Positions 5,857 through 40,723 of a DNA stretch of 64,000 nucleotides are shown here, piece after piece. Position 1 is the stretch's first letter. Each line of letters starts with the position of its first letter. Position numbers and translations under genes: made by a program. The DNA is from Nakamurella deserti (GTDB lineage: Bacteria; Actinomycetota; Actinomycetes; Mycobacteriales; Nakamurellaceae). The notes beneath the pieces are model-generated. The model saw only the letters and a list, made by a program, of their open reading frames with translations, had not been told where the DNA came from and searched no databases. The stretch is from positions 1,302,001-1,366,000 of the forward strand of contig NZ_QCXS01000002.1 in assembly GCF_003260015.1 (NCBI RefSeq). The letters run 5' to 3'.

Positions 5857-6040
5857 CGTGACGACGGTACCGATCGCCCGTCCGGTTCCGGACGTCGAGC
5901 GGACGGACGGTCGACGCCGCGCCCGGGTGAGTACCTGCTCCGGTTCGGCCGTCCGGAGCGGCAGAGAGTTTCCGACCCGGCGTCGGCGGGTCGGACCGCT
6001 CCCTGCGCCGCCCCGAACCGGCACCGGGCGCGGCGTTGCG

Positions 6041-6340
6041 TCAGTACTGCTGCGCGGGCTGATGGCCGACGCGCGACCGCAGCGCGGCCAGTTCGCGCTG
6101 TACCGGCCACTCCTTGAAGCAGAAGATGAGCAGGAACACGATGTTGGCGATGGGCACCAGCATGATGAGGATCCACACCCGCGAGTAGCCGGCCCGGGCG
6201 ATGACGTTGGTGTAGGCGATCAGCATGATGACGAACACGACGGAGCCGATGATGATCGCGGTCGCAATGGCGCCGCTGCTGAGGTTGCTCAGCTGGTTCG
6301 TGGTGGTGGTGATCTCTTCGGTGGTGATCACTTCGGACAT
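6041..6340 (-). CDS. Small two-helix membrane protein (99 aa)
   Basis: The sequence starts MSEVITTEEITTTTNQLSN, followed by two hydrophobic helices at about residues 23-45 (AIATAIIIGSVVFVIMLIAY) and 52-75 (VWILIMLVPIANIVFLLIFC), then a short basic tail. The composition resembles the small DUF-type integral membrane proteins of actinobacteria; no specific family is recognised. It lies between DUF1990 and polA on the same strand. A start at 6379 is possible but would add an unlikely Arg/His-rich segment. Confidence 0.6.
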   Translation of the reverse strand: MSEVITTEEITTTTNQLSNLSSGAIATAIIIGSVVFVIMLIAYTNVIARAGYSRVWILIMLVPIANIVFLLIFCFKEWPVQRELAALRSRVGHQPAQQY

Positions 6341-6422
6341 GGGTACCCCCCTGGGTCTCGAGCGGTGACACCACGCCACCGCATCGAACAGAGAGTATCC
6401 GATCGCTCACGCAGCGTGAGGG

Positions 6423-9176
6423 CTAATGTGCAGCAGCCTCCCAACTGTGACCGATCCCGATCGAGACGTCGAGCGGCACGTCGAGCTGGTAGGCGGTGCC
6501 CATCTCCTCCCGCAGCACGGTGGCGATCGCTTCCTGCTCCCCCGGGGCCACCTCGGCGACGAGTTCGTCGTGCACCTGCAGCAGCAGCCGCGACTTCAGC
6601 CGCTCGGCCCGGATCCGGGCGTCGACCTTGAGCATCGCCACCTTGATGAGGTCGGCGGCGCTGCCCTGGATCGGCGCGTTGAGTGCGTTGCGCTCGGCGA
6701 GCTCGCGGCGCTGCCGGTTGTCGCTGGTCAGGTCGGGGATGTAGCGCCGGCGTCCCAGCAGCGTCTCGGTGTAGCCCTCGACACGAGCGGTGTCGACCAC
6801 CCGGCGCAGGTACTCGCGGACCCCGCCGAAGCGGGAGAAGTACAGGTCCATCTGCGCCTGCGCCTCTTCGCGGCTGATCTTGAGCTGGTTCGACAGCCCG
6901 AACGCCGAGAGCCCGTAGACCAGGCCGTAGGTCATGGCCTTGATCCGCCGGCGCATCTCACCGTGGACCTGCTCGATGGGGATGTTGAACGCCTGCGCCG
7001 CGACGAACGAGTGCAGGTCCTCGCCCGAGTGGAAGGCCTCGATGAGGCCTTCGTCCTTGGACAGGTGCGCCATGATGCGCATCTCGATCTGCGAGTAGTC
7101 GGCCGTCATGACGCTCTCGTAGCCGTCGGAGGCGACGAACACCCCGCGGATGCGGCGGCCCTCGTCCGTGCGGACCGGGATGTTCTGCAGGTTGGGCTCG
7201 GTCGAGGAGAGCCGGCCGGTGATGGCGATGGTCTGCTGGTAGGTGGTGTGGATCCGGCCGTCGTCGCCGACCGCCTTGATCAGGCCGTCGACGGTGGTGC
7301 GCAGCTTGGACACGTCACGGTGCCGCAGCAGCGACGTCAGGAACGGGTGCGGAGCCTGCTCGTGCAGGGCGGCCAGCGCGTCGGCGTCGGTGGTGTACCC
7401 CGTCTTGGTGCGCTTGGTCTTGGGCATCTGCAGCTCGTCGAACAGCACGACCTGCAGCTGCTTGGGCGACCCGAGGTTCACCTCGTGCCCGATCGCGTCG
7501 TAGGCGGCCTGCGCCGCGGTCGCGGCCTCCGCGGCGAAGTCGCTCTGCAACGCCTGCAGGCCGTCGGTGTCGACCGCGATGCCGGTGCGCTCGACGGCGC
7601 CGAGGACGACGGTCAGCGGCAGCTCCAGCTTGCGCATCAGGTCGAGCTGGCCGGCGGTGGTCAGCTGCGTGGTGAGCGCTGTGTCCAGGTCGAGCACCGC
7701 CAGAGCCCGCAGCATGTCCTCGGCGGCGGCCGCGTCGGCGGCGCCGTCGGACTCGGCGTCGGCGTCCAGCTCGAAGGACAGCTGGGCCTCCGGCGTGGGA
7801 ACCGGCGTCTCCGCGGTGAGCGTCCGGTGCAGGTAGCGCTGGACCAGGTCGGACAGGTCGAAGGTGCGCTGCCCGGGGAGCGCGAGGTAGGCCGCCAGCG
7901 CGGTGTCGCTGACCACGCCCCGCAACTCCCAACCGCGGCCGGCCAGGATGTTGGCGGCGAGCTTGACGTCGTGGCCGACCTTCTCGGAGCTCGCGTCGGC
8001 GAGCCAGGCGCCGAGCGCGGCGTCGTCGTCGGCGTCGACCCGGATCGGGTCGATCGCCGCGGCCACCCCGCCGGGGGCGGCGACGGAGAGCATCCGCGGG
8101 TCGCCGTCACCCCGGATCCAGGTGCCGGTGACCCAGATGCCGACCTTGCGGCCGACGGCGTTCTCGGTCAGCCAGTCGCGCACCGAGCCCGGTTCCAGGA
8201 GTCCGCCGTCGAGCTGGAACTTCTCGTCGCTGGTGACGTCGGTCTGCTGGAAGTACTCCAGCAGCCGCTCCCGCAGGACCCGGAACTGCAGCTGGTCGAA
8301 GATGTCGTGCACGGCGTCCCGGTCGTAGGGCTGCGCCTCGAGGTCGACCAGTGGATCGACGTCCAGCGGCACGTCCCGGACGAGTTCGGTCAACCGCCGG
8401 TTCATCAGCACCTGCGGCAGCGCCGCCCGGAGCAGGCCGCCGGCCTTGCCGGGGACCTCGTCGACCCGGTCGGCGAGGGTGGCCAGCGAGCCGTACTCGG
8501 CGACCCACTTGGCCGCGGTCTTCTCGCCCACCCCGGGGATGTTCGGCAGGTTGTCCGACGGGTCGCCCCGCAGGGCCGCGAAATCCGGATACTGCGCCGG
8601 ACTCAGCGCGTACTTCGCCTGCACCGACTCCGGGGTGAACCGGGTCATGTCCGAGACGCCCTTGACCGGGTACAGCACGGTCACGTCGGGGGTCACCAGC
8701 TGGATGGCGTCGCGGTCGCCGGTACAGATCCGCACCGTCATGCCCTGTGCGGTGGCGTGGGTGGTGAGCGTGGCGATGACGTCGTCGGCCTCGAAGTTGA
8801 CCGCCGTCAGGGACGGGATCCGCAGGGCGTTGAGCACCTCGCGGACCAGCTCGACCTGGCCCTTGAACTCGTTCGGCGCGCTGGACCGGTTGGCCTTGTA
8901 GGCGACGAACTCCTCGCTGCGCCAGGTCTGCCGCGACAGGTCGAAGGCGACGGCGACGTGGGTGGGCCGTTCGTCCCGCAAGAGGTTGAGCAGCATGGAG
9001 GTGAAGCCGTACACGGCGTTGGTGTGCTGGCCGCTGCTGGTGGCGAACTTCTCCGCCGGCAGTGCGTAGAAGGCGCGGTAGGCCAGTGAGTGACCGTCGA
9101 GCAGCAGCAGCGTCGGTTTCCCCGCGGCGCCGCCGTAGGGGCCGACCGGACCGGGTTTCAGGGTGGGAGCACTCAC
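6423..9176 (-). CDS. polA: DNA polymerase I (about 917 aa)
   Basis: This family A polymerase fills gaps and removes primers. The 5'-3' exonuclease domain (about 15-310) begins LLLLDGHSLAYRAFYALP and has FEADDVIATL and GDRDAIQLV. The middle domain (about 330-500) lacks the D-x-E exonuclease I motif (IWVTGTWIRG in its place), so proofreading should be absent, as known for actinobacterial Pol I. The polymerase domain has motif A DYSQIEMRIMAHLS, O-helix RRRIKAMTYGLVYG and motif C LLQVHDELVAEV. The O-helix position equal to E. coli Phe762 is Tyr. GTG at 9176 is preferred because TAGAGT lies 7 nt upstream; GTG at 9185 or 9182 is possible. Confidence 0.96.
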   Translation of the reverse strand: MSAPTLKPGPVGPYGGAAGKPTLLLLDGHSLAYRAFYALPAEKFATSSGQHTNAVYGFTSMLLNLLRDERPTHVAVAFDLSRQTWRSEEFVAYKANRSSAPNEFKGQVELVREVLNALRIPSLTAVNFEADDVIATLTTHATAQGMTVRICTGDRDAIQLVTPDVTVLYPVKGVSDMTRFTPESVQAKYALSPAQYPDFAALRGDPSDNLPNIPGVGEKTAAKWVAEYGSLATLADRVDEVPGKAGGLLRAALPQVLMNRRLTELVRDVPLDVDPLVDLEAQPYDRDAVHDIFDQLQFRVLRERLLEYFQQTDVTSDEKFQLDGGLLEPGSVRDWLTENAVGRKVGIWVTGTWIRGDGDPRMLSVAAPGGVAAAIDPIRVDADDDAALGAWLADASSEKVGHDVKLAANILAGRGWELRGVVSDTALAAYLALPGQRTFDLSDLVQRYLHRTLTAETPVPTPEAQLSFELDADAESDGAADAAAAEDMLRALAVLDLDTALTTQLTTAGQLDLMRKLELPLTVVLGAVERTGIAVDTDGLQALQSDFAAEAATAAQAAYDAIGHEVNLGSPKQLQVVLFDELQMPKTKRTKTGYTTDADALAALHEQAPHPFLTSLLRHRDVSKLRTTVDGLIKAVGDDGRIHTTYQQTIAITGRLSSTEPNLQNIPVRTDEGRRIRGVFVASDGYESVMTADYSQIEMRIMAHLSKDEGLIEAFHSGEDLHSFVAAQAFNIPIEQVHGEMRRRIKAMTYGLVYGLSAFGLSNQLKISREEAQAQMDLYFSRFGGVREYLRRVVDTARVEGYTETLLGRRRYIPDLTSDNRQRRELAERNALNAPIQGSAADLIKVAMLKVDARIRAERLKSRLLLQVHDELVAEVAPGEQEAIATVLREEMGTAYQLDVPLDVSIGIGHSWEAAAH

Positions 9177-29664: not shown

Positions 29665-29737
29665 GCCCCTGTATCCCAATGGCAGAGGAAGCGGTCTCAA
29701 AATCCGTACAGTGTCAGTTCGAATCTGACCAGGGGCA
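29665..29737 (+). tRNA. tRNA with CAA anticodon (Leu-like), class I shape
   Basis: A 73-nt cloverleaf folds with acceptor GCCCCTG/CAGGGGC, D-stem TCC/GGA, anticodon loop CTCAAAA (anticodon CAA at 29698-29700), a 5-nt variable loop ACAGT, T-stem GTCAG/CTGAC with loop TTCGAAT, and discriminator A. CCA is not encoded. CAA reads the Leu codon TTG, but the variable loop is short whereas tRNA-Leu normally has a long one. The last anticodon-stem pair is T-T. TAAACT at 29603-29608 may be its -10. The 3' half is the attachment site of the island that follows. Confidence 0.85.
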
Positions 29738-29738
29738 C
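29701..29738 (+). repeat. attL: attL: 38-bp direct repeat within the tRNA 3' half
   Basis: From the anticodon loop to one base past the tRNA end, these 38 bp recur without mismatch at 40686-40723. They mark the left end of the island, with the tRNA kept whole on this side, as is usual for tyrosine-recombinase elements. Confidence 0.93.
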
Positions 29739-30775: not shown

Positions 30776-32749
30776 ATGCCCACCTCTAACACTCCAATAC
30801 AATACTCCGATCTGACAGAAATAGAGCATGACATCGTGCGCTCGTCCCAGACGGGCAACTGGTGGTACGCCGACCCGGATGCAAGCTTCGGGCCAGCGCT
30901 CGGAGCAGGTAACGACTCAACGCGCTGGGATGTCCGGGCAAAGGTGCTTGTCCAACTTCTTACCGGACTCGACGAACTGTCGTTCGACGCGAGCGGCGAT
31001 GCCCGTGCGGTGCGCGCCGTGCGCGTCTCGGGCGCGCGGATCGTAGGAGACTTCAACTTGGCGGGGTTCAAGCTGCGCTGTCCGCTTGAATTCGTCAACT
31101 GCTCTTTCATCACCAGTCAGCCATTAGACCTCAGCGGAACAAGCACCAGTGGACTTCGAATCGTTAGCTGCTCAATGCCGCGTGGTCTCAATGCAGCTCA
31201 GGTCGAGGTCAACGGTAACCTGGATCTGAGATTCCTTACAAGTGGCGACGTCGTAGACCTCAGTCAGGCGCAGATCGCCGGTTCACTTTACCTCCAGGGA
31301 TCTTCCCTCCGCAGCTCCGGCGATCAATCGCTACTTCTAGTCAGTGCCAAAGTGGGTGGCGGAATCTTCGCGGATAGAATGCAGTGCCGGGGAACCATGG
31401 ATGCCCTAAATTTGCAGGCCGACTTCCTTAAGCTTGACGGAGCTCATCTAGACAGTGAAGGGTCTACGGCTTTCATAGGCGAAGGCCTCAGGTTGCAGGG
31501 CAACTTTCTGGCTAGACAGGGTGCACGATTCGATGGTCTCGTGTCGCTCCGCAGTGCTGCGATACGGGGGCACCTGCTTTTAGACGGTAGTAGCTTCAAC
31601 AATGTCGGCCAAACGGCCCTCGATCTCAGTAATGCCGAGGTGAGTGGCGATATAGCATGCCGCGCCGGCTTTCTCTGTTACGGACGCTTCCAGATGCATG
31701 ATTCAAAAGTATTTGGATCTTTGCAGATGAACGGCGCGAGTTGCCACAACCCAGGCGATCTGGCTATCGCATTTGACCGACTGCAGGTCAAAGGCAGCTG
31801 GTTGTGCCGCGGCGGATTCTTCGCTGACGGCACAGTCTCTACCATCGACGCGAAGATTGAGGGCGAGGTTGCATTCGACGCCGCTGTACTCACCAATCCC
31901 GGTGGAGATACTGTGCGTGCGGAGAGGATAAGTGTCGGAGCATCCATCTTTTTCCGGGCACGCGCTCGCTCTGTGGGTCGTTTGAACTTCAGCAACGCGC
32001 AAGTAGGTGGTTCCGTATTGCTAGTTGAATGTGACCTGGTTGGTGCGGCGGACCAAGTGACATGCACCTTGAACGGTGCATCTGTCTCGGACTTGATGCA
32101 CGTCGCGCCCGCTGAACACCACGGTGTCATCGATTTGCGCGGAGCAAAGGCATCCCGACACAAGGGTGCTGCAGGTATAGCGGACCGGTATCAGCTACAG
32201 GGATACGTTTACGGAGCAATTATTCCTGAGGTTCCGACGGTGGACCTCCGCAACCGCCTGCAATGGCTGAGGAACGATCCAGAAGGGTACTCTCCAGGAC
32301 CGTACTCAGTGCTCGCCGGCGTCCTAAAACACCACGGGTATCTGGCGGAAGCCAAGAAAACGTCGATCGAATCTCAGCGCATTCGACGTGCTAGAACGCG
32401 CGGCGTGCGTGGTGTTGTATCGCGTTCCTGGAGCTTCCTCTTGCGCAATACAATTGGATACGGCTACAAGCCAGGGTTGGCTTTCGCCTGGCTCGTAATA
32501 ACGGTGGCGGTCGGTAGTACATCGATACAGTTGTTGCGAGACAAAATGGTAGCGGGTTCCGGTGCGCCGCCGTTCAACAGTCTAATATACGTCGTGGATA
32601 ATATGCTGCCGTTCGTTGACTTCGGCTACTCGAAATGGGTGGCTAGTGGTCTCGCTCAAATCGTGACCGTGGCCACTGTACTTTGCGGTTACGTTCTAGT
32701 TGCGGCCATCTTGGCCGCTCTCGCAGGCGTATTACGGCGCGGCGACTAG
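30776..32749 (+). CDS. Beta-helix repeat protein with two C-terminal membrane helices (657 aa)
   Basis: Residues about 75-480 are built of ~20-residue beta-solenoid rungs with recurrent patterns such as VDLSQAQIAGSLYLQGSSL, ALDLSNAEVSGDIACRAGF and LNFSNAQVGGSVLLVECDL, related to pentapeptide-repeat or bactofilin-like solenoids. A charged linker follows (about 490-550). Helix 1 is at about 567-585 (LAFAWLVITVAVGSTSIQL), and helix 2 at about 622-652. Between them lies FNSLIYVVDNMLPFVDFG, a segment typical of this actinobacterial family and possibly re-entrant. Some homologues are labelled oxidoreductases without evidence. A role as membrane effector or sensor in the island is inference. No partner overlaps it. 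Confidence 0.72.
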   Translation: MPTSNTPIQYSDLTEIEHDIVRSSQTGNWWYADPDASFGPALGAGNDSTRWDVRAKVLVQLLTGLDELSFDASGDARAVRAVRVSGARIVGDFNLAGFKLRCPLEFVNCSFITSQPLDLSGTSTSGLRIVSCSMPRGLNAAQVEVNGNLDLRFLTSGDVVDLSQAQIAGSLYLQGSSLRSSGDQSLLLVSAKVGGGIFADRMQCRGTMDALNLQADFLKLDGAHLDSEGSTAFIGEGLRLQGNFLARQGARFDGLVSLRSAAIRGHLLLDGSSFNNVGQTALDLSNAEVSGDIACRAGFLCYGRFQMHDSKVFGSLQMNGASCHNPGDLAIAFDRLQVKGSWLCRGGFFADGTVSTIDAKIEGEVAFDAAVLTNPGGDTVRAERISVGASIFFRARARSVGRLNFSNAQVGGSVLLVECDLVGAADQVTCTLNGASVSDLMHVAPAEHHGVIDLRGAKASRHKGAAGIADRYQLQGYVYGAIIPEVPTVDLRNRLQWLRNDPEGYSPGPYSVLAGVLKHHGYLAEAKKTSIESQRIRRARTRGVRGVVSRSWSFLLRNTIGYGYKPGLAFAWLVITVAVGSTSIQLLRDKMVAGSGAPPFNSLIYVVDNMLPFVDFGYSKWVASGLAQIVTVATVLCGYVLVAAILAALAGVLRRGD

Positions 32750-33396
32750 CGGCGCAGAAATGCGACCTCAAGGGTCCGCGTGGCGGCTTATCAGGCGTGC
32801 CGCGAGACACCACGACTTGGCGGTCGACCTCCCAAGAGCTCGCTTGGTGGACGACTGCGTGTGAACACGGTCCGCGGACACCGACGTGCGCGACCTGGGG
32901 CACTATCCAGGAGAAAGGCGTCGCCGCCTGGGTGGAGAACCCCCCGCGGGCGTCACGACGGGCGCTAGGTCCGATCCTGAGTCACCACCTATTGGTCACC
33001 AGAGTCAGTCGAGCATGAAGGCGCTCATGAACACCGTGAGCCAGGATGTGCCCCACCTGTGGGTCCTCGGTAAACGAAGGAGACTAGCAGCCGTGCCCTG
33101 AGGCTTTCGTCGCGGGCAGTGGCGAACTCAATGTTGTTCCATCCATCACCGACGGGTCTGACAGACAGGGGTCGGGACCGGGCCGGATACGAAATTGACA
33201 GGCGTCTTGGGCGAGTCGCCGAATCTTCACCGCCACGATGAAGCGCTTAATACCAAGTCGCATCCCGTTGACGCTGACCTCCGATCAGACGGAACCCAGC
33301 TACCTAGAGGCGTCCGCAGCGTGCGCTGGTAGCCTACCGCTAGCATGTAGCGAAGAAGGTTAAGGAGTGCATACCACACTGAAGAGGAGTGTCGTG
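32750..33396. other. Intergenic region in the island, no gene seen
   Basis: These 647 bp contain only short open frames without a credible SD or protein-like sequence. The last 60 bp include GCTAGCATG-like -10 candidates and the SD of the next gene. Confidence 0.4.
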
Positions 33397-34128
33397 ATGG
33401 AGAAAATACCGCAAGTGTCTCCGCAAGGGAATACTGTTTATCCAGATGTCCCCCCTATTTTAGCTGCTTCTGCGCATGAATCCATCAAGTTCGCTGTCGG
33501 CCCCGCAGAGAGCAAGCGATCAGAACTATGGTGGATTCATGCAACCGACGACGGGTTTTATGTTGGTACGCCCCTATTCAACTACATGACCTTCTCCTTT
33601 CACAAGTCCGGTCGGTGGTCGCTGGCTTGGACCCATTCAGCTGCTCAGCGGTTCGGCATAAACGGCACGCGAATCATCGAGTCCTTCCGTCCGTCGCCTG
33701 AATCGGCACCCGGCCGAATGCATGCGTTGTCTATTGTGATCCCCATGACGAGTTTAGTCACACCGGGGGTTGGGCGCACAAACGTCGGTGACGAAGTTTC
33801 GTATTGGCCGCCCCTTCGGAGAGACGAAGCCGTCTCGTTTGACATATACGTACATCAACCTAACGCACCTGAAGCCACTCTTGCGGGACCCATACTGGGA
33901 CTAGTAGGAACCTGTCCAACGCTTGACGGAGGCCAGCTGGCGATCGTCGCGATGGCGCTTTGCTCGGTTGAGGCGAAAAATTGGTTGTGGCAAATGCGGA
34001 CACAGGAGATGCAGAAACCGGTCCAACCAAATCCTAAAGGCGGGCAACATTCTTTCGCTACAGCCAAAGTAGGCGGGGTATTGCATATCGTCGATCTGGG
34101 CGATCCCAACAGTCCTAATCTTTTCTAG
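33397..34128 (+). CDS. Hypothetical island protein (243 aa)
   Basis: No family is recognised. The protein is soluble with no signal or membrane segment. The N-terminal part is rich in aromatics (SELWWIHATDDGFYVGTPLF, MTFSFHKSGRWSLAW), and the middle has a hydrophobic strand ALSIVIPMTSLVTPG and SFDIYVHQP, suggesting a beta-sandwich. The ATG at 33397 has AGAGGAG 7 nt upstream; a GTG at 33367 would have its SD too close. It is convergent with the alpha/beta hydrolase, 21 bp apart. Codon use is the AT-richer island type. It could be a substrate or partner of the neighbouring protease, but nothing in the sequence shows it. Confidence 0.72.
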   Translation: MEKIPQVSPQGNTVYPDVPPILAASAHESIKFAVGPAESKRSELWWIHATDDGFYVGTPLFNYMTFSFHKSGRWSLAWTHSAAQRFGINGTRIIESFRPSPESAPGRMHALSIVIPMTSLVTPGVGRTNVGDEVSYWPPLRRDEAVSFDIYVHQPNAPEATLAGPILGLVGTCPTLDGGQLAIVAMALCSVEAKNWLWQMRTQEMQKPVQPNPKGGQHSFATAKVGGVLHIVDLGDPNSPNLF

Positions 34129-34149: not shown

Positions 34150-35106
34150 TCAAAGTACAGATGACACGAGCTCACCGACGGACTTATGTGCCAAGTATCT
34201 AAAAGCGTCGTGTGAGCGTCTACCGTTGTTGACTACAAGCGATTCAATGGAGCGGCCGAAGCCGTGGACATCTGGAAACAATTGGGATATGTCCGACTTA
34301 GTCGCTACAAGATCATTTTTATCACTCACGTTCACCCAACGAGGCACGAATTCCGGGAACGCGGGTGGTCGCTTTGAGAGCCTGTCGTAGATTACTGATC
34401 TTAACCCGAGCGGGCTCCCGAGTGTGATTAGCAGAGAAGGTACGGGCATTGAGTCTTCCTGCCGGCAGAGGTAATCGTAAGCAACAACTGATCCAAGGGA
34501 ATGCGCGATAAGGACCTTCGTATCGGAATCGCAAACTGCAACCAGTCGTCCACTCACCTGCTCACGAATTTCTTCGTCTGTCATGTAGCGAACCACCTCA
34601 ACGAGATCTCGGAAGAACAAGCGTTGTGTGAGCCAAAGGCCGCTTGTCGCCAGCCAACGAACTCTGCTCAACGAAGAAACCGCCGTCCGCGCAGCCCTTT
34701 TGCCGATTCCTTGTTGCTCGCGCCCCGCTCCTGTCAAAGCTGATAACTCGCGTTGCGCCTGGGCATTTGCCGAATGGGCAGGATCTTCGGCCAGCTCGTA
34801 CAACCACAGCATCGATAACTCTTCGGCAAGATCACGTTGTTCGGAAGTCAAACCGATAAAAGGGTCTGCAGCTCCCTGCGTATTGGGAGTAGTAAATACA
34901 TCAGCATAATAGGCCAAGTCTACCGATATCAAATTACTGTCTCGCGCGAGCCGTGCAGACGGATTAGGCGTATGGATGCGGCACGCTAAGTCAGCGCGCC
35001 CTGCCTCCAAGAGACAACTCTTTAAGGCCTCACCGAACTCTTGTTGTAGAAGTACCGGTTCCCGGTTCGTCTGCCCGATGCCGTGGACGACAGCTATTCG
35101 TGTCAT
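34150..35106 (-). CDS. Serine alpha/beta hydrolase, lipase-like (318 aa)
   Basis: The oxyanion segment is at the start, IAVVHGIGQTN. The nucleophile elbow is VLIAHSLGSVVAYDYL (Ser203, in AHSLG), followed by LITLGSPLGLR, a likely acid Asp265 in NVSDKNDLVA and His299 in RRSHDAFRYL. This layout matches PGAP1/lipase-like hydrolases that are frequent next to STAND NTPases. Helical segments (about 85-175) may form a lid. No signal peptide is present, so it acts in the cytosol or at the inner membrane face. GAGGA lies 6 nt before the ATG at 35106. It is divergent from the caspase-STAND-TPR gene with only 87 bp between starts. Confidence 0.85.
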   Translation of the reverse strand: MTRIAVVHGIGQTNREPVLLQQEFGEALKSCLLEAGRADLACRIHTPNPSARLARDSNLISVDLAYYADVFTTPNTQGAADPFIGLTSEQRDLAEELSMLWLYELAEDPAHSANAQAQRELSALTGAGREQQGIGKRAARTAVSSLSRVRWLATSGLWLTQRLFFRDLVEVVRYMTDEEIREQVSGRLVAVCDSDTKVLIAHSLGSVVAYDYLCRQEDSMPVPSLLITLGSPLGLRSVIYDRLSKRPPAFPEFVPRWVNVSDKNDLVATKSDISQLFPDVHGFGRSIESLVVNNGRRSHDAFRYLAHKSVGELVSSVL

Positions 35107-35193
35107 TCAGATTCCTCGTTGATTATTACGACGCGCGAGTGCAGTTATACTAGGTTCCCGTAATGGTAGCAGCAGAAAAATCTTGGAGAGCAG
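35107..35193. promoter_or_regulatory. Divergent promoter region, hydrolase / caspase-STAND-TPR
   Basis: These 87 bp must drive both genes. On the + strand TATACT (35146-35151) is a near-consensus -10; a -35 at standard spacing is not clear. GGAGAG lies 4-5 nt before the ATG at 35194, and GAGGA precedes the hydrolase start on the other strand. The close packing suggests joint control. Confidence 0.55.
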
Positions 35194-38169
35194 ATGAGTG
35201 AACGGCATGCCATTGTTGTTGGCTCACAGTGCATCAGCCTGCCGTCGCAACCACTCACCTTCCTCCCAGGTAGAGCATCAGACCTGTTCGACGTACTTGT
35301 GGACCCTGACTTAGGTGCATGCGATCCTGCAGCGTCTACGCTGCTGATTGATCCGACGACATCGGAAATGGTAGCTGCAGTTCAAAGATCTGTAGCCAGT
35401 GCCAGCGAGTCAGACGCGGCCCTACTTGTCGCACTCATCGGGCACGGTCACGTGCCGGAATTCGGTCCAGCAGATCAGCTGTTCTTCCTCACCAAGGATG
35501 CTTCGGTTCCCCCGACCAGCCACGCTGGCTACCACATTGCGCAGAACCTAATCGACAGTTTACGACTTGACGGATCCGCAGGAGTAACAGGTGTACTACT
35601 CATCATCGACACTTGCTACGGCGGTGTCGGTGCTGCGGAGGTAATGAATGGGTTGCAGACCATCGCGGCGTCAGCAGATATCTCGTTGGAGATTGCAGGA
35701 GCCACGTTTGATCAAGTTGCCATTGATGGGTGCTTCTCAAACTCACTGGTTGAACTGTTGCGTAGCGGGCACCAAGCCCCGATTGAGCACTTCAGCGTCC
35801 GCGATACGAGCAATTGGGCGGCTCAGATATGCACGGCTCAAGAGGAACCGGTACATTTGGCTTTCGCCCGGGGACGTCTTCTGCCCATGGGCGACCCCGG
35901 GCTCTGGATTGCAAAAAATAAGAAATACAACCAGCAACCGGGCGGCCTATTGGGCGGCATGCAAGAATTAGCCATTTCCTCGACTTTCTACGCGCCGACA
36001 ACTGCCTTGGAGGATGTTGTGGAAGCTGCCGACAGCGGCGGCTGCGTATTGATAGTCGGTACGTCCGGTAGCGGGAAGACCACGCTGTTCTCTGCCCTCG
36101 CGGCACCGGAAAAGGCCCCCGGGATCATCCCCCAAAGCTTTCTGAATGCGGCCGCTTTCTGCTCGAAGTCGTCCACGGTGGAGACGTTGTGCGACGTTCT
36201 AGTCGCTCAACTTTCGAATAGTCATAGTTTCTTGCTATCAAGCGCAAGCTATCAGGACGCTCGCTCGGAAACCGAATACGCCCTTGAGTCGACCTTCCTG
36301 GCACGTGTTCTGGGTCCCTTACTTGATAGTGTAGAGCAGGACCCCGCAACGCCGCCGGTTCGGATCGCCATAGACGCGGTCAACTTGCTTGCACCTTCCG
36401 ATCTGACCGAAGTTTTGTCGACGGTGATCGATAATCAAGCACGACTTAACGACAGCTCGTTAACTGTGATCCTGTCAACGACCGCTGAGGCAGATCTGGT
36501 GACAAACTTCCCCGCGCTTCGTGTTGTGTACTCTAGAGATCCCACTTCGGACGAGATAGCCGTATATCTTCGTTCTCGGGGACTGCCCTCGAAGCTGGTC
36601 GCTGCGGTGACAGAGGCTATGGGCCAGTGCTCGTGGATGCAGTTAAGCCTATTGGCTGATGAACTCCTGCGTCGAGAAGCTGCGGCTCTAAGAGCCGTAC
36701 GGTCGCTCGACGAGATGTATGAACTCATGCTTGCAGATCTCACATCGAATGATGCACTCGCCAAAGCCGCGGTGGAAGTAATGGCAGTCGGAACGAAAAG
36801 CGCGTCAGTCCCCTCGGACATCGCTCGTCGGGCCGTCGAAGTCGTACTTGAGCAATCCGTTACGCTGGCAGCCTGGCGCTCCGTATTAGCAAAATGCGGT
36901 TCTCTCATAGTGCGCCGGTCCGCAGGAACTGAAGGGGAGCAGATCGGGCTTCTCCACGACTCATTATCGGCATTTCTAATAGCGTCAATGGACGAAGCCA
37001 CCGTGCATTCTGCTTTCCTAGCGACAGCGAGTATAGGGGCCGAGCCTGGACTAGCGCGGGACTATTGGGAAGTTAGTCTTATTGAGCACCTCTGGGGCGC
37101 GGGTGCCTATCACGAAGCTCTGGCAGCTGTTCGCGAGTCTCTAACTCAGCGTCCAGGTGATAATCTGCCCAAACTTCGTAGGTGGATTACTCGCGCCGGG
37201 AGCGTTCTAGGCGAGTTCGATACCGAAATGATTGAGCTTCAAACTGCCGTTGCTAATCAATACGGTATGGCTGGCGCTGTGGACATGGCTGTGACGGAAC
37301 TGAGCGAGTTGCTTGAACGCTTGTCAGCGGAGTATGGCGCACACGACGAGATGACCTTCAGCACTCGCTATAGCATATCTCATTGGCTAATCGAGCTTGG
37401 TCATTTCGAAGAGGCTATGCACTGGCTGAAAGCATTGCTCAGGGACCAAACAGTTTTCTATGACCCCAAATCTGGAGAGGTATTAGTAACCAAGTTTGCG
37501 ATTGCGACTGCACGACTGGGGGTAGGTGATTCGGGTGCTCGCGATGATCTAGTCGAGCTGATCGCGGAATTCCCGGAGGGGAGCGAGGACAACCTCAATG
37601 GCCTTCGATGGTTGTCCGCTGCGAAGAACAACGAAGCATATGCCCGAGCACAATCCGGAGATCTGAAAGGTGCGTTGTCAACGTTCCGCGAGTTATTAGG
37701 TGATCAGCTAGAGCTAGGTTTATCCGCTTCGGACCGAGATGTGATGCTGACGCGAAACAACATTGCGCAGATGTATCAAGATCTTGGTCAGCTAGACCTT
37801 TCGCTGGCGGAGAACAGATTACTGGTCGCGGACAGGACCGATGCGCTTGGTGAACGCGATCCAGACACGCTAGTCTCGCTCAACAACCTAGCCGCGTCCT
37901 ACTTCTTATTGGGCCATTTTGGCACAGCGCGGCAACAATTTTGGACCTTGTATCAGACTAAACTCGAGGTCTTCGGACCGCGTCGTCAGTCTACGCACTA
38001 CACCTTGGAAAATTTGATTTCCTGCATCAACAAGGATCGAACGACTGCGGTGACAGAACTGCGGGCTCTCCGATCGGCGATAAGTGAGCTGCCTCTTAGC
38101 GCATCTTGTTGTTTGGAGTTTGTCGATGCCGCGCAATCTAAGGGGTTGGACTCAGGGATACTTCAATAG
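35194..38169 (+). CDS. Caspase-like protease / STAND NTPase / TPR protein (991 aa)
   Basis: Residues about 1-230 are a C14 caspase-like domain with catalytic His84 in LIGHGHVPEF and Cys141 in LLIIDTCYGGVG. Residues about 265-510 are a NACHT-like STAND NTPase: Walker A IVGTSGSGKTTLF (Lys295), Walker B-like VRIAIDAVNLLAP (Asp394), then a winged-helix region with GLLHDSLSAFLIAS (about 586-599). Residues about 620-960 are TPR repeats, clearest in TRNNIAQMYQDLGQLDLSLA and VSLNNLAASYFLLGHFGTAR. In this fold class TPRs sense a trigger, the NTPase oligomerises, and the protease is released; that is family knowledge. An anti-phage or cell-suicide role is inference from the island context. All key residues are present, and the frame is intact. 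Confidence 0.9.
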   Translation: MSERHAIVVGSQCISLPSQPLTFLPGRASDLFDVLVDPDLGACDPAASTLLIDPTTSEMVAAVQRSVASASESDAALLVALIGHGHVPEFGPADQLFFLTKDASVPPTSHAGYHIAQNLIDSLRLDGSAGVTGVLLIIDTCYGGVGAAEVMNGLQTIAASADISLEIAGATFDQVAIDGCFSNSLVELLRSGHQAPIEHFSVRDTSNWAAQICTAQEEPVHLAFARGRLLPMGDPGLWIAKNKKYNQQPGGLLGGMQELAISSTFYAPTTALEDVVEAADSGGCVLIVGTSGSGKTTLFSALAAPEKAPGIIPQSFLNAAAFCSKSSTVETLCDVLVAQLSNSHSFLLSSASYQDARSETEYALESTFLARVLGPLLDSVEQDPATPPVRIAIDAVNLLAPSDLTEVLSTVIDNQARLNDSSLTVILSTTAEADLVTNFPALRVVYSRDPTSDEIAVYLRSRGLPSKLVAAVTEAMGQCSWMQLSLLADELLRREAAALRAVRSLDEMYELMLADLTSNDALAKAAVEVMAVGTKSASVPSDIARRAVEVVLEQSVTLAAWRSVLAKCGSLIVRRSAGTEGEQIGLLHDSLSAFLIASMDEATVHSAFLATASIGAEPGLARDYWEVSLIEHLWGAGAYHEALAAVRESLTQRPGDNLPKLRRWITRAGSVLGEFDTEMIELQTAVANQYGMAGAVDMAVTELSELLERLSAEYGAHDEMTFSTRYSISHWLIELGHFEEAMHWLKALLRDQTVFYDPKSGEVLVTKFAIATARLGVGDSGARDDLVELIAEFPEGSEDNLNGLRWLSAAKNNEAYARAQSGDLKGALSTFRELLGDQLELGLSASDRDVMLTRNNIAQMYQDLGQLDLSLAENRLLVADRTDALGERDPDTLVSLNNLAASYFLLGHFGTARQQFWTLYQTKLEVFGPRRQSTHYTLENLISCINKDRTTAVTELRALRSAISELPLSASCCLEFVDAAQSKGLDSGILQ

Positions 38170-38546: not shown

Positions 38547-39822
38547 TTAATGAGTAGCTTTCAAGGTGCTTGGCAATAGACGCATAGGTTTCTCCGAGAA
38601 ACGCAATGTCTGTATCGTCGTCCTGTCCGCAGTGAAGACATCGAACCCGTCAGCATCCGCGTTAGGCCGTCGTGATGGAAGTCGAGCGAGCCGTTGGGGC
38701 TCGACGCACCTCAAGGTCCCCCAGTCCCGCAGCATCCATGGGTCTAGTACCTGCAACGCGGCTTCCGTATCTAAACCCAAGAGGCTCGCTCGGAACTGCG
38801 TCGGGACCAGGGATACGAACCTGCTCAATGGTCCGGCGAGTCTGTAAAACTTGGCAGTCTCTGTGGACGCATCGAAATGATACACCCGGACAAGTTCGAA
38901 ACTATCGGGGTGTGTTTCGCTGAAGGCGAGCTCGTTAGGACTAACGAAGAACGACGCAGATGCGGCATTCCTCGTTGTCTTCACCTCGATGTGCCGTGCG
39001 CGTCCGTCTTCACTAAATGAGCGGATGTCATAGCCTGCACCATCTCCTTCGACTACTAACACGTGGACGATCCGTTCTGCGAGTTCGGGCCGCCCAAGTT
39101 GCACAAGCCGGCGTTGCTCCGCAAGCAGAATAAGCCGTTCGCCAGCCAAGCCGAGGACCTTGTTTCGTGCGTCTTGATCCGGGTGCAGCGCCATCTTGAC
39201 TGCCTTGAATTGCGCTGTTCTAGTGGGTCCAGGAGTGCGGCCGCCTGGTGCTTCCTGTTCCACCAGGTGGTATCGGTCCAGGGTCTCGTCCTCCGCGCTC
39301 ATCAACTCGACCGAAGCCGGATTGATCGACGGTTCTTGCACTGCGGGGTTGTCTACTGGGACGAGGGGTAACCCCATGCCGCGACGGACATGAGCGGGCA
39401 CTGGCCAGTCCATGAGCTGCCATTGAAAGTGCACTGGCTGCTCCCGTTCTTGATCATGACTCAAGTACCCCAGGGTTCCATGTATGTGTACGGATCACGC
39501 GCGCGGGTCCGCAAGAATAGAAAGATTGACTCCGCGAGGTCGTTGTGACTTATCAAATCCTTCACCGTTGCATGTTGCAAGCGTTGTTGCGGCTGAGACT
39601 GCCAGGACAACACACCGTCCGCAGTAATGGACTCGTCGAAGGCGTGTTTACCTTCGATGCGACCGAAGGTCACGAAGAAGACGAATGACGTGGGCCGCTC
39701 CGGTAGGCGAACTATCCCCGAGATGCCCAGCTGCCTGCCTGTGGAGTGAAGTGAGTGTCCGGAGAGAAAATGGCGTGGACATCTTCTCGGGTGTAGCTGT
39801 GCCAGAGCTCTAGTGTCTTCAT
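38547..39822 (-). pseudogene. DUF3427-DUF3883 nuclease-like protein, broken by two 1-nt deletions
   Basis: Joining three frame segments from the ATG at 39822 restores one 425-aa protein. Segment 1 is MKTLELWHSYTREDVHAIFS ending GSW near 39727. Segment 2 has FVFFVTFGRIEGKHAFDE, VLSWQSQPQQ and SIFLFLRTRARDPYTYM. Segment 3 starts LGYLSHDQEREQPVHFQWQL near 39477. Segments 1-3 N-terminal match DUF3427, found in restriction-type proteins. The C-terminal DUF3883 has GDGAGYDIRSFSEDGRARHI then EVKTT, a PD-(D/E)xK-like pattern. Both frame changes are explained by loss of one G, in TGGGC (39726-39728) and ATGGA (39478-39479). It may be a true pseudogene or two sequence errors. Confidence 0.8.
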
Positions 39823-40685
39823 CCTGCCTGCATGCTCCTTGGTGACCCGCCAGGAGGCGGTTCACGTTGAGTTGGGCGGCTCACGACGGCCGCCGGGCGG
39901 GTCTACCTACCTCCGGCGGTCACCACCTGCCTGGCGTGGCGAGGAGAAGCCGCCGCGGTGGTCGCGGACTCAGCCGCGGAGGCACGATGCCCCGCGCAGG
40001 CCACCTGAGGTACCGCGGACGATTCTGTGCCGTCTGTAAATCGGAGTCGCTACCCCGATGCCCGCGTTGCCGTTACGTAGGAGGCTCCTGGAGGAGCGAA
40101 GGGAAGCCGGGGGTAAGTAGACCCGCCCCCGGCGACTCCCGACCACTCTGGCGTACTAGGAGAAGTCCCCATGAGGGTGGTGGTGGGCGTGGACTTCGAC
40201 TTGGGCAGGGATGTTCCGAAACGAACAAAGGACCTACAGTCAGGGCCGGAGGCCGCCAGTTGAAGCTGGCGACCCCGACCCGGGTGCTCAACCTCGGACG
40301 ATTACAACCCGACGTTGTCGAACGGGTCCGAAGGCATGTGCGTGTTCAGAAAATGCTGGGCTCAGGCCGAGAGCGCGTTATTCAAGCTCCGCCTCGACTG
40401 CCCGGAGCCTGGGCGACGCGGCACCGCAGCTCATGGCCGTCGCGCTCCACGACGAAGACTGGAGCGAGGGGATGAAAGACTTCGCGCAGGCTGCACGCGC
40501 CAGCGCCAGCACGGTGACGCCGCCCGCTGAACGTTCACTGAACGAATTAGAAGGGAAAATCCGCGTACTGAAGCGCGGCTCTGCGTAGGGACAGGGTCTG
40601 CGACGCGTGGTCTCATCAGCTATTACTCGTCACGGCCACTCACGAATGACCCCCACGCTGCCCCATCTGACCCCCGCCTGAAACG
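39823..40685. other. Right end of the island, unassigned relic DNA
   Basis: These 860 bp hold no supported gene. GC content rises again. One frame contains FCAVCKSESLPRCPRCRYVG, with a C-x2-C/C-x2-C pattern that could be a zinc finger or chance. Another has LATPTRVLNLGRLQPDVVERV, and near 40431 MAVALHDEDWSEGMKDFAQA leads to a stop at 40588. They look like fragments of former genes, but no family could be named. Confidence 0.4.
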
Positions 40686-40723
40686 AATCCGTACAGTGTC
40701 AGTTCGAATCTGACCAGGGGCAC
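40686..40723 (+). repeat. attR: attR: second copy of the 38-bp repeat
   Basis: The copy is identical to 29701-29738 and comprises the tRNA 3' half from the anticodon loop on. The 5' half is missing, so it is not a tRNA gene. It marks the right end of the island, 26 bp from the stop of the SRPBCC gene. Confidence 0.93.

What the first reader, a model, noticed from the sequence alone, without database searches (positions are those of the whole stretch)
34150..38169. Divergent caspase-STAND-TPR protein and serine hydrolase in a tRNA island
A 991-aa protein joins a C14 caspase-like domain (His84, Cys141), a NACHT-like NTPase (Lys295, Asp394) and TPRs, and shares an 87-bp promoter region with a serine hydrolase (Ser203, Asp265, His299). 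The sequence shows intact frames and all key residues, while the integrase and the nuclease-like gene in the same island have decayed. Family knowledge says STAND proteins with TPR sensors act in phage defence. The inference is a two-enzyme system in which triggering releases a protease and a lipase/esterase. The caspase-plus-hydrolase pairing is not one I can match to a named system.
Basis: partly seen in the sequence, partly recalled or inferred. Interest (0 to 1): 0.78.

Follow-up and report, generated by a model that had tools for sequence, protein, structure and literature searches.

The report
Two-gene bacterial caspase–lipase immune pair
Two intact genes that start 88 bases apart encode an NLR-like protein with a caspase domain and a lipase-like enzyme, and this pair is kept together across many bacteria, which points to a small self-contained cell-suicide (probably anti-virus) system that, as far as I could find, nobody has yet tested.

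Summary
The 991-aa ORF (35194-38169, +) is a caspase–STAND ATPase–TPR protein. The 318-aa ORF (34150-35106, –) is an alpha/beta hydrolase. The pairing is not chance. Of 80 homologous hydrolase loci, 68 have a caspase gene directly adjacent. In 299 genomes of the order, all 10 members of this caspase subfamily have the hydrolase within 150 bp, against 5 of 56 other caspases. The island is real: an exact 38-bp tRNA-Leu repeat bounds an 11-kb low-GC stretch. The pairing is not unprecedented: Kaur et al. 2020 (eLife) described 'alpha/beta hydrolase–caspase' pairings in vWA–MoxR–VMAP systems. New here is a free-standing subtype with no MoxR, vWA, VMAP or EACC1: a caspase fused to an APAF1-like STAND–TPR, paired on the opposite strand with one clade of a phospholipase-like hydrolase, in Actinomycetota and in Burkholderiaceae and Acidobacteriota MAGs. 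Likely mechanism: TPR sensing, STAND oligomerisation, caspase cutting after Arg/Lys, hydrolase switched on, membrane damage, abortive infection. The activation step and phage defence are inferred, not shown. New variant of a known kind.

The parts
35194..38169 (+). 991-aa caspase–STAND ATPase–TPR protein (whole gene)
   Evidence: Intact ORF; Pfam C14, AAA_16/AAA_22 and TPR_12/TPR_10; AlphaFold2 model, mean pLDDT 82; Foldseek hits 6mfv STAND-TPR and APAF-1
35194..35928 (+). Caspase (C14-like) domain, residues 1-245; His84 codon 35443-35445, Asp139 codon 35608-35610, Cys141 codon 35614-35616
   Evidence: H84, D139 and C141 invariant in 96/96 homologues and in subfamily alignments A3, A5 and A6
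35959..36753 (+). STAND/AP-ATPase-like NTPase region, residues about 256-520; Walker A Lys295 codon 36076-36078, Walker B Asp394 codon 36373-36375
   Evidence: Pfam AAA_16/AAA_22; K295 nearly invariant and D394 invariant in 16-17 aligned sequences; structural match to 6mfv and 1z6t
37051..38148 (+). TPR/kinesin-light-chain-like alpha-solenoid, putative sensor, residues about 620-985
   Evidence: TPR_12/TPR_10; helical hairpins with pLDDT mostly above 80; kinesin light chain TPR matches by profile
34150..35106 (-). 318-aa alpha/beta hydrolase, lipase/phospholipase-like; Ser203 codon 34498-34500, Asp265 codon 34312-34314, His299 codon 34210-34212
   Evidence: Triad conserved; AlphaFold2 pLDDT 88; VIA-align best matches lysosomal PLA2, Z 14.8, LCAT and Nir2 DDHD; PGAP1-like Pfam hits in 39/64 homologues
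35107..35193 (.). 87-bp intergenic region between the two divergent starts, with a Shine-Dalgarno-like sequence on each side; candidate -10 elements by eye only
   Evidence: Sequence read; the promoter scan found no consensus site here; divergent homologues also have short gaps
34675..34731 (-). Hydrolase insert region, residues about 126-144, basic and low-confidence: candidate but unproven protease-gating loop, followed by a hydrophobic helix segment
   Evidence: pLDDT block means 59-74 over residues 131-160; variable, no strictly conserved Arg
29665..29738 (+). tRNA-Leu(CAA); its 3' part 29701-29738 is the left attachment repeat
   Evidence: ARAGORN; exact repeat
40686..40723 (+). Right attachment repeat, exact 38-bp copy of the tRNA-Leu 3' end
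   Evidence: G000:C2:1342686-1342723, 100% identity

Best explanation
A free-standing two-gene programmed-cell-death (probably anti-phage) system. Protein 1 is an NLR-like receptor: its TPR solenoid senses an infection cue, its AP-ATPase-like STAND module oligomerises, and the caspase domains are thereby clustered and activated to cut after basic residues. Protein 2 is a lipase/phospholipase-like alpha/beta hydrolase held inactive in the resting cell. The activated caspase complex switches it on, most likely by cutting its basic inserted loop or by recruiting it, and it then damages membrane lipids and kills or arrests the infected cell. Shown here: the anatomy, conservation of every catalytic residue, genomic pairing of this caspase subfamily with the hydrolase, and a single hydrolase clade with opposite-strand arrangement. 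Inferred: basic P1 specificity (from the invariant Asp two residues before the catalytic Cys), lipid substrate, direction of activation, and phage as trigger.
For: 68/80 homologous hydrolase loci have an adjacent caspase; all 68 caspase homologues detected in 1.25 Mb of flanking DNA are the adjacent gene. In 299 genomes of the order, 10/10 caspases of this subfamily have the hydrolase within 150 bp, against 5/56 other caspases, Fisher p 1.4e-8, not corrected for relatedness. The pair persists in all four gene orientations, so linkage is not inherited operon order alone. Caspase H84/D139/C141 invariant 96/96; hydrolase triad at least 91/92. The 22 hydrolases of the STAND-TPR subtype form one clade in the pair tree. 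STAND fold matches 6mfv and APAF-1; hydrolase matches PLA2, LCAT and DDHD, Z 13-15. Precedents: caspase-alpha/beta hydrolase pairing (PMC7159879), caspase-activated pro-nuclease canu (PMC12799240), CARD-NLR variants with phospholipase effectors (as stated in PMC13236601). The pair lies in a tRNA-bounded island, and relatives occur on plasmids and predicted viral contigs.
Against: No strictly conserved Arg/Lys cleavage site in the hydrolase loop. Ten Nocardia species keep an intact same-clade hydrolase with no caspase beside it, and its loop looks like that of paired ones, so the hydrolase is not obligatorily tied to a neighbouring caspase. In Amycolatopsis the pair sits in shared chromosomal flanks, so it is not always mobile. 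No PADLOC model covers either protein. Substrate and phage activity are untested.
Confidence: 0.45

Rival explanations
1. The two enzymes are parallel effectors: the STAND oligomer recruits the hydrolase non-proteolytically, the caspase degrades cell proteins and the hydrolase attacks lipids at the same time.
For: Both active sites are equally conserved; no conserved cleavage site found in the hydrolase; structure of the hydrolase is well ordered except around one loop.
Against: The caspase- and trypsin-containing defence pairs tested in PMC12799240 are sequential; the invariant DxC of the caspase suggests a basic-specific processing protease rather than a general degrader (plus family knowledge).
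Confidence: 0.25
2. The hydrolase acts upstream as a regulator: it removes an acyl group or makes/destroys a lipid signal that sets the membrane location or threshold of the caspase–STAND protein.
For: Hydrolase conserved with many differently built caspase proteins (STAND-TPR, STAND-WD40, VMAP) while being the constant partner; orphan hydrolases persist in Nocardia; structural matches include acyl-protein thioesterases.
Against: No direct support; acylation signals in the caspase protein were not looked for.
Confidence: 0.15
3. The pair is a stress- or development-linked cell-death switch of multicellular actinobacteria rather than an anti-phage system.
For: Pairs concentrated in filamentous Actinomycetota (the search was seeded from an actinobacterial alignment, so partly biased); shared flanks in several Amycolatopsis; a CARD-NLR-like system has been co-opted for lysis in Caulobacter (PMC13236601).
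Against: In this genome it sits in a tRNA-bounded island, and the 16 genus relatives searched have no close homologue of either gene; relatives are on plasmids and predicted viral contigs.
Confidence: 0.12
4. Chance neighbours or unrelated cargo genes.
For: None found; opposite strands alone would have allowed it.
Against:: adjacency across families and phyla in four orientations.
Confidence: 0.02

Closest known systems
Alpha/beta hydrolase–caspase pairings of vWA–MoxR–VMAP ternary systems (Kaur et al. 2020, PMC7159879)
   Same: Same two enzyme classes as neighbours; the hydrolase alignment also recovers VMAP loci (e.g. L064 with VMAP-M2 E 9e-48), so the hydrolase family is shared.
   Different: No MoxR, vWA or VMAP gene found among the island's intact genes; caspase fused to its own STAND ATPase and TPRs; opposite-strand gene order.
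EACC1–caspase two-gene systems (Kaur et al. 2020; NCBIfam caspase_w_EACC1)
   Same: N-terminal caspase with a variable C-terminal part; two genes; weak match E 6e-10, 39 bits.
   Different: Far below the 140-bit cutoff; no EACC1 domain in neighbouring genes; partner is a hydrolase, not a membrane sensor.
Canu caspase–nuclease defence loci and trypsin–MBL pairs of Hachiman/AVAST (PMC12799240)
   Same: Works like: protease paired with a second enzyme that is a pro-enzyme; canu loci often carry TPRs.
   Different: Effector is an alpha/beta hydrolase, not an MBL nuclease; STAND ATPase fused to the caspase; activation by cleavage not demonstrated here.
CARD-NLR / gasdermin systems, including variants with phospholipase effectors (Wein et al. 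2025, as cited in PMC13236601)
   Same: NLR-like ATPase plus protease plus membrane-damaging effector logic.
   Different: No CARD or gasdermin was found by the family scans; protease is a caspase fused to the ATPase; the hydrolase belongs to an unnamed family whose relation to those phospholipases was not tested.
Bacterial NLR-like STAND defence (bNACHT, Avs)
   Same: N-terminal effector–STAND–repeat sensor layout; TPR sensor.
   Different: ATPase is AP-ATPase/APAF1-like by structure and only weakly NACHT-like; no PADLOC Avs model matches.

Membership tests
Alpha/beta hydrolase–caspase pair (pairing of Kaur et al. 2020) | Caspase-domain gene with a neighbouring alpha/beta-hydrolase gene of the shared family | tested here: met
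   Adjacent genes in the window; shared hydrolase family with VMAP-type loci L064, L035, L039, L042
vWA–MoxR–VMAP ternary system | MoxR AAA+ and vWA genes plus VMAP domains | tested here: not met
   Pfam scan of the five intact island genes shows none of these
EACC1–caspase two-gene system | EACC1 single-TM partner gene and caspase above the NCBIfam cutoff | tested here: not met
   No EACC1 in the neighbouring genes scanned; caspase_w_EACC1 39 bits against cutoff 140
Canu caspase–nuclease | MBL-fold nuclease partner | tested here: not met
   Partner is an alpha/beta hydrolase by sequence and predicted structure
Canu caspase–nuclease | Partner enzyme proteolytically activated by the caspase | not testable with these tools
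   Loop conservation inconclusive
CARD-NLR system | CARD domain and NLR-like ATPase with trypsin-like protease | tested here: inconclusive
   No CARD or trypsin match among the scanned island genes by sequence profile; a remote CARD fold was not searched
STAND NTPase (AP-ATPase/NACHT-like) | Walker A Lys and Walker B Asp within a STAND fold plus C-terminal superstructure-forming repeats | tested here: met
   K295 nearly invariant and D394 invariant; 6mfv E 4e-11 and APAF-1 E 4e-6; TPRs
Caspase/metacaspase clan (C14-like) | His–Cys dyad with DxC motif (Asp expected for basic P1) | tested here: met
   H84, D139 and C141 in 96/96; Pfam C14 22.7 bits, just above the 21.4 cutoff
Lipase/phospholipase-like alpha/beta hydrolase | Nucleophile elbow (HSLGS), Ser–Asp–His triad, alpha/beta-hydrolase fold | tested here: met
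   Pfam only weak (Abhydrolase_6 E 0.0023, below cutoff)
Lipase/phospholipase-like alpha/beta hydrolase | Activity on phospholipids | not testable with these tools
   Only fold similarity to LPLA2, LCAT and DDHD
Anti-phage defence system | Protection against phage requiring both genes | not testable with these tools
   No PADLOC model covers either gene; island context only

The most novel reading that the evidence does not exclude
A self-contained 'caspase apoptosome-phospholipase' immune module in which an APAF1-like STAND-caspase fusion proteolytically activates a pro-lipase to lyse the membrane: a bacterial two-protein counterpart of pyroptosis that uses a lipase instead of a gasdermin, with the same hydrolase serving as constant effector for several different caspase sensors (STAND-TPR, STAND-WD40, VMAP).
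Probability: 0.35. Interest if true: 0.8.

Novelty: new variant of a known kind. Interest (0 to 1): 0.55.

Why it matters
The caspase–alpha/beta hydrolase pairing was noticed computationally in 2020, but I found no experimental test of it. This locus is the smallest version found here: two genes, with sensor, switch and protease in one protein and the hydrolase in the other. That makes the open question of what the hydrolase does directly testable. If the caspase activates a lipase, bacteria would have another class of protease-gated killer besides gasdermins and pro-nucleases.

Tried and rejected
Chance adjacency: rejected. Membership of EACC1, VMAP or canu: defining partners absent. A conserved protease-gating Arg in the hydrolase loop: position 134 is Arg in 34/92 and position 140 in 41/92, and orphan Nocardia hydrolases keep the same segment, so inconclusive, not supported. 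Phage relatives of the hydrolase: none in the phage collection; viral-contig relatives found only with the alignment query. Solved-structure homologues of the hydrolase by sequence: none. Foldseek gave no hit below 0.001 for the hydrolase. Whole-genome PF00656 search missed this divergent caspase. The mirror-tree correlation (r 0.50) is not corrected for the species tree, so it is weak evidence. The Wein et al. 2025 paper was not held.
Full report
Observation. Both open reading frames are intact at the stated positions. The 991-aa protein carries a divergent caspase domain (Pfam C14 22.7 bits, just above its cutoff), a P-loop ATPase and TPRs. The 318-aa protein on the other strand is a weakly recognised alpha/beta hydrolase (Abhydrolase_6 E 0.0023). 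The two ATGs are separated by 87 bp. A simple sigma-70 scan found no consensus promoter in that interval, so 'shared promoter region' is positional, not demonstrated.

Island. tRNA-Leu(CAA) lies at 29665-29738. Its last 38 bp recur exactly at 40686-40723. GC is about 55-57% for most of the stretch between, against about 70-77% to the right. No Phage_integrase match (E up to 0.1) lies within the island. Its intact part matches PADLOC PDC-S36 at E 3e-49. The caspase and hydrolase genes are therefore intact cargo in an otherwise partly decayed island.

Is the pair real? I searched outward from the hydrolase. In 200 relatives the best six foreign hits, all in one genus, have a divergent caspase–STAND gene in the neighbouring position. 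Matching contig lengths identify several of them as Amycolatopsis (e.g. contigs of 398361 and 353162 bp). A genome-collection scan with the hydrolase alignment gave 80 loci. With an iterated caspase profile, 68 of them have a caspase directly adjacent, and no other caspase was detected in 1.25 Mb of their flanks. The reciprocal test used 299 genomes of the order. All ten hits of this caspase subfamily (over 130 bits) have the hydrolase within 150 bp, against 5 of 56 weaker caspase hits; Fisher p 1.4e-8. Several of the ten are congeneric Amycolatopsis, so they are not ten independent events and the p-value is optimistic. The breadth comes from Kibdelosporangium, Nocardia, Rhodococcus and Streptomyces, and from Burkholderiaceae and Bryobacterales MAGs. 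The MAG assignments are those of the records.

Subtypes. The hydrolase is the constant partner. The caspase proteins vary: caspase–STAND–TPR, caspase with an extra FHA domain (6 of 17 members of the aligned subfamily), caspase–STAND–WD40, and caspase–VMAP. Pairs occur hydrolase-first, caspase-first, divergent and convergent. In every member of the window's caspase–STAND–TPR subfamily found next to a hydrolase, the two genes lie on opposite strands. The 22 corresponding hydrolases form one clade in the pair tree. Ten Nocardia species have a hydrolase of the same clade with no caspase beside it (in that larger tree one opposite-strand member, L145, falls outside the clade, support 0.65).

Active sites. 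His84, Asp139 and Cys141 of the caspase are invariant in 96 of 96 aligned homologues. From family knowledge, Asp two residues before the catalytic Cys is typical of metacaspases and paracaspases that cut after Arg/Lys; Asp-specific animal caspases have Gln there. Walker A Lys295 is nearly invariant and Walker B Asp394 invariant, though one Amycolatopsis partner has lost the P-loop (L092). In the hydrolase Ser203, Asp265 and His299 are conserved in 91, 92 and 91 of 92 paired sequences.

Structure. The hydrolase model (mean pLDDT 88) is an alpha/beta hydrolase. Foldseek gives no confident hit. The second-look aligner ranks lysosomal phospholipase A2 (Z 14.8, 184 residues, 3.3 A), LCAT and Nir2 DDHD among the highest, with many esterases and thioesterases close behind, so 'lipase/phospholipase-like' is a reasonable but unproven call. 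Pfam matches to homologues are led by PGAP1-like. The 991-aa model (pLDDT 82) matches the STAND–TPR protein 6mfv (E 4e-11) and APAF-1. The least well ordered stretch of the hydrolase is about residues 131-160, near a basic loop. It was considered as a protease gate, but no Arg/Lys is strictly conserved and orphan hydrolases keep the same segment.

What is known. Kaur et al. 2020 (PMC7159879) state that in VMAP systems every caspase domain has a neighbouring alpha/beta-hydrolase gene, and that a related hydrolase occurs in GAP1-N1 systems. The 2025 canu work (PMC12799240) shows a caspase activating a pro-nuclease, and suggests that other proteolytically activated enzymes exist. CARD-NLR variants with phospholipase effectors are mentioned in PMC13236601. 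I found no experimental study of the caspase–hydrolase pair in the held library. PADLOC has no model for it. The present locus is therefore a free-standing variant of a known predicted pairing.

Mechanism and confidence. That the two genes work together: about 0.9. That the caspase is an active basic-specific protease: about 0.75. That the role is anti-phage or programmed death: about 0.65. That the caspase proteolytically activates the hydrolase: about 0.45. That the hydrolase attacks membrane lipids: about 0.55. These are judgements, not computed values.

Noticed in passing
L088, L091, L094-L098, L100, L102, L103 (hydrolase at about 8000-8920): Ten Nocardia species keep an intact same-clade hydrolase with no caspase beside it, in similar chromosomal surroundings; its role without a protease is unexplained.
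   Followed up: partly
window 38547-39865 (-): DUF3427-like/NOV_C gene (PADLOC PDC-S36, E 3e-49) split by a frameshift near 39464; a decayed candidate defence gene in the same island.
   Followed up: partly
window 30776-32749 (+): 657-aa pentapeptide-like protein with hydrophobic C-terminal segments; a 27%-identical relative lies upstream of a caspase–hydrolase pair in Streptomyces (L130:1234-2463).
   Followed up: no
window 33367-34128 (+): 253-aa protein with no family match, convergent with the hydrolase and ending about 20 bp from it; no relative found near other pairs.
   Followed up: partly
L045 residues 512-575 of the caspase protein, and other Amycolatopsis: An FHA phosphopeptide-binding domain is present after the STAND module in 6 of 17 subfamily members, and L092 has lost its P-loop.
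   Followed up: partly
L040 (Sinorhizobium fredii plasmid) 5998-8003: A member of the same hydrolase family is followed by a CHAT-domain gene instead of a classical caspase, suggesting the hydrolase can pair with other caspase-clan proteases.
   Followed up: no
L161, L162 (IMG/VR contigs): Caspase–hydrolase pairs on contigs classified as viral, possibly prophage-borne.
   Followed up: no
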